A stretch of 64,000 bases of DNA from Bacteriovorax sp. BAL6_X. Lineage in GTDB: Bacteria > Bdellovibrionota > Bacteriovoracia > Bacteriovoracales > Bacteriovoracaceae. The notes beneath the pieces are model-generated. The model was not told where the DNA came from, did not search any database, and was given only the letters and a program-made list of their open reading frames with translations. The stretch lies in contig NZ_AUMC01000006.1 of the NCBI RefSeq assembly GCF_000443995.1, positions 372,001 through 436,000 on the forward strand. Reading direction: 5' to 3'. Position 1 is the stretch's first letter, and each line of letters begins with the position of its first letter. A program made the position numbers and the translations under genes. Below are positions 22,264 to 24,137 of the stretch, one piece after another.

Positions 22264-23604
22264 ATGGCGATTATTAAGCCGCAAAATGCAAAAGGTACAA
22301 GAGACTTTGGTCCAATTGAGTCATCAAGAAGAAATCACATTTTTGAAGCAGTTAAAAAAAGGTTTCAATCTCATGGTTTTATGCCACTTGAAACTCCGGC
22401 CGTTGAAAACTTGAACGTACTGACGGGAAAATATGGTGAGGAAGGAGATAAACTTCTTTTTCGCGTTTTGAACTCTGGAGACTTTTTAAAGAAAGTTAAA
22501 CCTGAAGATCTTCAAGAAAAGAACCTTAGTGCCGTTTCGAGTAAGATGTGTGAGCGTGGACTTCGCTACGACCTCACTATTCCTTTCGCTCGTTATGTGT
22601 GTGCAAACCTAAATGATCTTGCACTGCCATTTAAGCGCTACCAAATTCAGCCGGTATGGCGTGCTGATCGTCCTCAAAAAGGACGCTATAGAGAGTTCTA
22701 CCAGTGTGATGGAGATATCATCGGAACAGAATCACTTCTAAGTGAAGTATCACTTGTTGAAGTCTATCACGATGTATTTAAAGACCTAAAAATCGACGGT
22801 GTTGAAATCGTTATTAATAATAGAAAAATCCTACAAGGAATTGCAAGTGTTCTAGGTGTTAGTGATAAATTAACAGATATGACAATTGCCATTGATAAGC
22901 TCGATAAAATTGGCGCTGAGAAAGTTGGAGAAGAACTACTTAATCGTGGCTTCTATGAGGACCAAGTAAGTCGTCTTTCAACTCTTCTAACTCTTGAAGG
23001 TAGCTCAGATGAGAAACTAGCAAAGATTAAAGACTTTCTTGGTGAAGATGAGATTGGGAAGCTAGGACTTGAAGAGCTGGAATTTGTTCTTTCAAATGTA
23101 AGAGAGCTTGGTATTGAAAACCTTGTTTTTGATCCAACTCTTGCCCGTGGACTCGATTATTACACAGGTTGTATATTTGAAGTAAAACTAGTTGACGGCT
23201 CAATGGGAAGCATTGGCGGCGGTGGACGCTACGATGACCTAACAAGTATGTTTGGCCAAAAAGAGAAGCTTTCTGGTGTTGGAATCTCATTTGGAGCCGA
23301 AAGAATTTATGATGTGATGCTAGATCGCGGTTTATTTGAAGATATTAGTGCAAGTGTTGATTACATGATCATCAATATGGATGAGAACGACCAAAAGCAA
23401 TACCTTCAAATTGCTAGAAAATTTAGAACAGAAGGCCACTCTATTGAAATCTACCCTACTTCGGCAAAAATGAAGAAGCAGATGACTTACGCTAATAAAC
23501 GCGGAGTAAAGAATGTAATCTTCTATGGCGAGGCCGAAAAAGAAAAAGGTGTGTTACAAGTAAAACATATGGAGTCTGGAGAACAAACAGAAGTAAGCAG
23601 ATAA
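22264..23604 (+). CDS. hisS: Histidyl-tRNA synthetase
   Basis: 446 residues, a class II aminoacyl-tRNA synthetase that charges tRNA-His. Visible landmarks are the start KGTRDFGP, motif 2 YQIQPVWRADRPQKGRYREF with YQCDGDIIG, the histidine-A signature LARGLDYYTGCIFEV, and motif 3 GGGGRYDDL near residue 320. The C-terminal anticodon-binding domain follows from residue 350. The ribosome site GAAGGGGTAATTTA precedes the ATG. A strong terminator follows the gene. Confidence 0.97.
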   Translation: MAIIKPQNAKGTRDFGPIESSRRNHIFEAVKKRFQSHGFMPLETPAVENLNVLTGKYGEEGDKLLFRVLNSGDFLKKVKPEDLQEKNLSAVSSKMCERGLRYDLTIPFARYVCANLNDLALPFKRYQIQPVWRADRPQKGRYREFYQCDGDIIGTESLLSEVSLVEVYHDVFKDLKIDGVEIVINNRKILQGIASVLGVSDKLTDMTIAIDKLDKIGAEKVGEELLNRGFYEDQVSRLSTLLTLEGSSDEKLAKIKDFLGEDEIGKLGLEELEFVLSNVRELGIENLVFDPTLARGLDYYTGCIFEVKLVDGSMGSIGGGGRYDDLTSMFGQKEKLSGVGISFGAERIYDVMLDRGLFEDISASVDYMIINMDENDQKQYLQIARKFRTEGHSIEIYPTSAKMKKQMTYANKRGVKNVIFYGEAEKEKGVLQVKHMESGEQTEVSR

Positions 23605-23608
23605 AACA

Positions 23609-23634
23609 AAAGCCTCGCAAAGCGAGGCTTTTTT
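23609..23634. terminator. Bidirectional rho-independent terminator between hisS and histone gene
   Basis: A ten-base-pair stem (AAAGCCTCGC with GCGAGGCTTT, AAA loop) is followed by TTTTTTATTT on the plus strand. On the minus strand the complement ends in TTTTGTTTT. It sits between convergent hisS and the histone-like gene and can end both transcripts. Confidence 0.9.
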
Positions 23635-23661: not shown

Positions 23662-23946
23662 TTATCCTAGGATATCGTATGGACGAATTGTCTTTCTACC
23701 GTTAGCTGTACATCTCTTTTGAGCTTGATCAACTAGCCAGTATACGTACTCGTTCATTGCTTCAAGAGCATCTGAAGATACGTTGTATCCTTTACCCTTA
23801 AGAGCTTCTTTAGTTTTTGAACCAACTAGAAGCATTTCTTTTTTCTTAGTTGCTTTTTTAGCTGTTTTCTTAGCTGCTTTTTTTGGAGCTGCTTTCTTTG
23901 CTGCCTTCTTTGGAGCTGCTTTTTTCGTAGCTTTTTTCTTTGCCAT
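23662..23946 (-). CDS. Histone-fold protein with lysine/alanine-rich N-terminal tail
   Basis: 94 residues. Residues 1-36 are a basic tail of alternating KKA/KKAAP units like histone H1 or AlgP-type tails. Residues about 40-94 look like a complete single histone fold. There is a short helix 1 (SKTKEALKGKG), then V-S-x-D-A at the start of a long central helix 2 (SDALEAMNEYVYWLVDQAQK), then the loop R(K)TIRPYDIL, which fits the KTxxxxD paired-element and helix 3 of histones. Bacterial histones are known chromatin proteins in Bdellovibrio; this copy adds a long basic tail. It is predicted to bind DNA as a dimer. The function is inferred, but the fold signature is clear. Confidence 0.8.
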   Translation of the reverse strand: MAKKKATKKAAPKKAAKKAAPKKAAKKTAKKATKKKEMLLVGSKTKEALKGKGYNVSSDALEAMNEYVYWLVDQAQKRCTANGRKTIRPYDILG

Positions 23947-24137
23947 TTTAAACCTCGTGTTTAGTGTTTTTAATGAAATTTTTGTAATAATGTAATTTTA
24001 AGTACCTGGCCTAAACTACGTCAATAAAAAAACGGAATGCCTCTTTAATTTGTCGATAAAACCCCCTGATCTCAACTAAATAAGTGGGTAAAATGGTCAC
24101 CTTTGCACCAAATCTAAGCTTAAGCTAGTCTTTAGAA

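What the first reader, a model, noticed from the sequence alone, without database searches (positions are those of the whole stretch)
23662..23946. Bacterial histone fold fused to an H1-like lysine/alanine tail
The sequence shows a single histone fold of about 55 residues, with long central helix SDALEAMNEYVYWLVDQAQK and loop/helix RKTIRPYDIL. It is preceded by 36 residues of KKA/KKAAP repeats. Tail-less bacterial histones are known as chromatin proteins in Bdellovibrio; a lysine-tailed version combines the two eukaryotic-like elements (H1-style tail and core-histone fold) in one bacterial chain. Whether it wraps, bends or bridges DNA, and whether the tail is modified, is unknown.
Basis: partly seen in the sequence, partly recalled or inferred. 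Interest (0 to 1): 0.8.

Follow-up and report, generated by a model that had tools for sequence, protein, structure and literature searches.

The report
Tailed tetramer-type histone in predatory bacterium
This gene from a marine predatory bacterium of the Bacteriovorax group encodes a small DNA-packing histone with a long positively charged tail; it belongs to an already described family of bacterial histones in which such tails are common, so it is a good new member rather than a new kind of protein.

Summary
In detail: 23662..23946 (-) encodes 94 aa, a 37-residue Lys/Ala N-terminal tail (net +17) followed by one 57-residue histone fold. AlphaFold gives a disordered tail and helices 42-51, 58-81 and 89-93. 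The interpretation needs correcting. The nearest solved relative is not Bdellovibrio Bd0055/HBb, a DNA-bending dimer, but HLp of Leptospira perolatii, a "face-to-face" (FtF) histone tetramer reported to wrap about 60 bp. All three conserved FtF tetramer residues (R78, N82, R84) and the five main HLp DNA-binding positions are present; HBb lacks two of the three tetramer residues. Schwab et al. 2024 already reported FtF histones in class Bacteriovoracia and basic N-terminal tails as common in bacterial FtF histones. The tail is therefore not a new combination, and its position is that of a core-histone tail, not an H1 tail. Added here: tail length varies from 0-2 to 43 residues across relatives, and all 14 genomes found with two FtF copies pair a longer basic-tailed copy with a 4-6-residue uncharged one. 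This genome has only the tailed copy, plus HU/IHF and a divergent second histone. New member of a known kind.

The parts
23662..23946 (-). Tailed FtF-type bacterial histone, 94 aa, 10.3 kDa, pI 10.3
23836..23946 (-). N-terminal tail, residues 1-37 (MAKKKATKKAAPKKAAKKAAPKKAAKKTAKKATKKKE), net charge about +17, predicted disordered
23662..23835 (-). Histone-fold core, residues 38-94 plus stop; tetramer residues R78, N82, R84; RD clamp R84-D91; DNA-contact positions S43, K44, K46, K50, R88
23953..23956 (-). Shine-Dalgarno GAGG, 6 nt before ATG
23995..24024 (-). sigma-70-like promoter TTGACG-18-TAAAAT (consensus match only)
23608..23632 (.). Hairpin terminator-like site between convergent hisS (+) and the histone gene (-), found on both strands
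22264..23604 (+). hisS (histidyl-tRNA synthetase, named from sequence knowledge), convergent neighbour conserved in the genus; context, not part of the system

Best explanation
A chromosomal chromatin protein of the bacterial face-to-face (FtF) alpha3-histone family. Two chains form the handshake dimer through the alpha2 helix. Two dimers close into a ring-shaped tetramer through R78/N82/R84 and the C-terminal residues. DNA is wrapped about once (about 60 bp) round the positively charged rim made by the alpha1 ends (S43/K44/K46/K50) and loop 2 (R88). The four disordered tails (about +65 in total) lead into alpha1, whose start contacts DNA in HLp. They add non-specific affinity by neutralising wrapped, linker or neighbouring DNA, and so favour compaction and bridging of beads. 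Shown here: sequence, predicted fold, conserved residues, tail charge and predicted disorder, occurrence in relatives. Inferred from HLp: tetramer and wrapping. Inferred only: the tail's role.
For: HLp is the best sequence match and the best structural match. The three tetramer residues of HLp (R49, N53, R55) align with R78, N82, R84; the FtF-type relatives extracted keep R or K at the first position and N at the second. The five residues said to give 52% of HLp binding energy (R59, K21, K15, S14, K17) are all identical here (R88, K50, K44, S43, K46). The FtF motif RxTxxxxD is present (R84-D91). Tail disordered and +16 to +17. Codon choice resembles ribosomal protein S4 and HU rather than ordinary genes (8 of 12 C-ending in F/Y/N/D/H/I codons, against 31% pooled in six window genes; Fisher p=0.012), consistent with high expression. 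The published survey places FtF histones in Bacteriovoracia and reports basic tails as common.
Against: No multimer prediction could be run, so the tetramer is inferred from residues. 22 of 110 relatives have K instead of R at the first tetramer position, so the exact contact is not invariant. Relatives with 88-90% identical cores have only 5-8 residue tails (L014-L020), so the long tail cannot be essential to the core function. The codon test rests on 12 codons.
Confidence: 0.82

Rival explanations
1. A Bd0055/HBb-type 'bacterial dimer' histone that bends or coats DNA as a dimer, with a tail added.
For: HBb is the second-best sequence match (E 6e-4) and superposes well (TM 0.75-0.81 by target). 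R78 is replaced by K in some relatives.
Against: R78 and N82, whose absence marks bacterial dimers, are present. HLp is closer by sequence by nearly eight orders of magnitude in E-value. The published class assignment is Bacteriovoracia = FtF, Bdellovibrionia = dimer.
Confidence: 0.08
2. FtF histone whose tail is mainly a regulated platform: its lysines are reversibly acetylated, as shown for the lysine-rich HU homologue HupS of Streptomyces, so that chromatin is loosened or tightened, for example between attack and growth phase. (Concerns the tail; compatible with the FtF core.)
For: The genome encodes one protein of the histone-deacetylase superfamily (PF00850, E 2e-37). Precedent: HupS acetylation lowers DNA affinity (PMC11229371).
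Against: PF00850 proteins are found in 9 of 14 control genomes, most of them bacteria. The tail is not conserved in sequence or length. No proteomic data.
Confidence: 0.12
3. FtF histone whose tail is a nearly neutral low-complexity extension that grows and shrinks with little effect. (Concerns the tail; compatible with the FtF core.)
For: Tail length ranges from 5 to 43 among relatives with 80-95% identical cores. The tree needs about 14 changes between long and short tail, though only 2-3 are forced by well-supported branches.
Against: Net positive charge is kept in every long tail (+5 to +20). All six genomes of the genus are tailed (20-43 residues). Codon-shuffle tests show no recent DNA duplication, so lysine content seems kept at protein level. 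The short-tailed copy is consistently the other paralogue in 14 of 14 two-copy genomes.
Confidence: 0.15

Closest known systems
HLp, FtF histone of Leptospira perolatii (PDB 9QT0/9QT1/9QT2; PMC12701072)
   Same: Fold, truncated alpha3, tetramer residues R-N-R, RD clamp, all five main DNA-binding residues, about 45% identity over the core
   Different: HLp has only about 7 disordered N-terminal residues; here 37 lysine/alanine-rich residues. Two extra C-terminal residues after the position of HLp F63
Bacterial FtF histones of Bacteriovoracia and other phyla (Schwab et al. 2024, PMC11390915)
   Same: Same family, same class of bacteria, positively charged N-terminal tail reported as common
   Different: Nothing that the tools show; tail length of 37 is at the long end of the range seen here (0-2 to 43)
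HBb/Bd0055 of Bdellovibrio bacteriovorus (PDB 8CMP, 8FVX)
   Same: Single bacterial histone fold, RKT loop motif, similar chain fold
   Different: Dimer that bends DNA, no long tail, lacks R48/N52 of FtF; more distant in sequence
Mycobacterial HupB / Streptomyces HupS (HU with H1-like lysine-rich tail; PMC5676037, PMC11229371)
   Same: Works-like comparison: lysine/alanine tail on a nucleoid protein, shown there to be needed for nucleoid association (HupB) and acetylated with loss of DNA affinity (HupS)
   Different: HU fold, C-terminal tail; not homologous
Eukaryotic linker histone H1
   Same: K/A/P-rich composition of the tail
   Different: No winged-helix globular domain; tail is N-terminal and attached to a core-histone fold; composition only

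Membership tests
Face-to-face (FtF) bacterial histone | Single alpha3-type histone fold with short alpha3 | tested here: met
   Helices 42-51, 58-81, 89-93; Foldseek best 9qt1/9qt0, TM 0.76-0.78 by target
Face-to-face (FtF) bacterial histone | Conserved R48 and N52 (profile numbering) plus R54 for dimer-dimer contacts | tested here: met
   R78, N82, R84
Face-to-face (FtF) bacterial histone | RxTxxxxD motif | tested here: met
   R84-K-T86-I-R-P-Y-D91
Face-to-face (FtF) bacterial histone | Torus-shaped homotetramer | not testable with these tools
   Only single-chain prediction is offered
Face-to-face (FtF) bacterial histone | Wrapping of about 60 bp DNA | not testable with these tools
   Shown for HLp (PMC12701072); DNA-contact residues conserved here
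Bacterial dimer histone (HBb type) | Absence of R48 and N52 | tested here: not met
   Both present (R78, N82); HBb has S and D there (alignment)
Linker histone H1 | Winged-helix globular domain | tested here: not met
   No such domain in Pfam scan or model
Eukaryotic core histone with conserved tail | Tail sequence conserved among homologues | tested here: not met
   Tail length and sequence vary even among close relatives
Eukaryotic core histone with conserved tail | Post-translational modification of tail lysines | not testable with these tools
   Needs mass spectrometry; only a deacetylase-superfamily gene was found

The most novel reading that the evidence does not exclude
In many Bacteriovoracia a tailed and a nearly tail-less FtF histone co-exist (14 of 14 two-copy genomes found). 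They may mix into hetero-tetramers or mark different chromosome regions, so that tail dosage per bead acts as a bacterial histone-variant system; the window's genome, with only the tailed FtF copy, would be its all-tailed state.
Probability: 0.12. Interest if true: 0.65.

Novelty: new member of a known kind. Interest (0 to 1): 0.3.

Why it matters
Natural relatives with about 90% identical histone cores differ mostly in tail length (5 to 43 residues), a ready-made series for asking what a lysine tail does to a DNA-wrapping histone outside eukaryotes. It also bears on how tails arise: in the window's clade all 28 long tails start with the same MAK as most of the short ones, which points to growth between a fixed start and the fold rather than the new upstream start codon proposed for other prokaryotic tails (PMC10919886).

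Tried and rejected
Pfam PF00808 against the own genome found nothing: the histone is below the curated threshold. NCBIfam hits for the whole protein are low-complexity tail noise. Recent DNA-level tandem duplication of the tail: Tandem Repeats Finder reports a 27-bp unit, 3.7 copies, 80%, but shuffling synonymous codons gives equal or stronger periodicity in 20-67% of shuffles, so the repeat is explained by the amino-acid repeat; rejected as evidence of recent slippage. Phage origin: no match in 50,697 phage records. Tree of cores: too few columns (57) to resolve, used only for rough counts. A literature search for Halobacteriovorax histones found no study.

Full report
Observation. The window's minus strand at 23662..23946 encodes a 94-residue protein. 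Residues 1-37 are lysine/alanine repeats with 18 basic and 1 acidic residue; residues 38-94 form the core. The start is supported by a GAGG ribosome-binding site 6 nt upstream and by the same MAK start in most close relatives. AlphaFold, on a shallow alignment of nine sequences, gives pLDDT below 50 for residues 3-33 and 75-89 for most of the core, with helices 42-51, 58-81 and 89-93.

What it is. By sequence the nearest solved protein is HLp of Leptospira perolatii (9qt0, E=8e-12); HBb/Bd0055 of Bdellovibrio is far weaker (E=6e-4). By structure HLp is also first. HLp is the first characterised bacterial face-to-face histone: a tetramer in solution and in crystals, with R49, N53 and R55 at the dimer-dimer contacts and an R55-D62 clamp. 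Simulations end with about 60 bp wrapped, and MNase protects 35-72 bp. The aligned residues here are R78, N82, R84 and D91. The five HLp residues that dominate binding energy (R59, K21, K15, S14, K17) are R88, K50, K44, S43 and K46 here, all identical. HBb lacks the first two tetramer residues, which is how the survey separates 'bacterial dimers' from FtF. The protein is therefore filed as FtF by residues and fold; the tetramer itself was not tested.

Relatives. A search of 369 genomes of the phylum finds relatives in 230 at E<=0.001 (a looser set than FtF alone), with cores up to 95% identical. The convergent hisS neighbour is kept in all five sampled congeners. In 110 extracted sequences the tail ranges from 0-2 to 43 residues (0 where the assigned start lies at the core boundary, L031); long tails average 44% K, 23% A, 12% T. 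All six genomes of the genus have tails of 20-43 residues. Some relatives with 88-90% identical cores have only 5-8 residues. In the clade ending in YDIL or similar, all 28 long tails begin MAK, as do 11 of 16 short ones, so the start codon is probably the same and length changes inside. A DNA-level test does not support recent tandem duplication.

Paralogues. Fourteen genomes yielded two FtF genes. In all 14 one copy has a longer basic tail (8-30 residues, net +3 to +14; 13 or more residues in 11 of 14) and the other a 4-6 residue start with net charge 0 or below. In G037-G039 the difference is only 8 against 6 residues. The window's genome has only the tailed one. Its second histone, on contig 10, is a divergent HBb/ZZ-histone-like protein. 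It also has three HU/IHF-family proteins, none with a lysine/alanine tail like this one.

Function. The core's role is carried over from HLp. The codon choice of the gene (8 of 12 C-ending) is like that of ribosomal protein S4 (74%) and HU (74%), unlike six neighbouring genes (31% pooled); p=0.012, small numbers. High expression is therefore likely, as reported for the Leptospira FtF histone. The tail's role is inferred from charge and from HupB, where an analogous C-terminal tail is needed for nucleoid association, and HupS, where acetylation of the protein lowers DNA binding. One deacetylase-superfamily protein exists in this genome, which is common in prokaryotes and is weak evidence.

Novelty. 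The 2024 survey already lists FtF histones in class Bacteriovoracia and says that bacterial FtF tails are common and mostly positively charged. The reported item is thus a new member of a known kind. The tailed/tail-less pairing was not found stated in the papers read, but supplementary files could not be opened, so its novelty is not claimed firmly.

Noticed in passing
L002:1225-1677 (G000:C10 near 871331): Second histone of this genome, resembling the C-terminal half of the ZZ-type histone seen in L108 (APRRIIVG there, EPRRILV here), but without a cysteine-rich ZZ domain in the same frame upstream; possibly a ZZ-histone that lost its ZZ domain.
   Followed up: partly
L128, L129, L139, L141, L144, L145: Six MAG contigs labelled Candidatus Omnitrophota carry FtF histones 71-84% identical in the core to the window's, with short tails; either gene transfer, misbinned contigs or an undescribed host group.
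   Followed up: no
L178:2064-3266 (-): A protein that looks like a DNA topoisomerase IV subunit A (recognised from sequence, not searched) ends in a KKKAKKKAVKKKSK tail, another lysine-tailed DNA protein in this genome.
   Followed up: no
14 genomes, e.g. L046/L074 and L041/L075: Two FtF histone copies per genome, always one with a longer basic tail and one with a 4-6 residue start of net charge 0 or below.
   Followed up: partly
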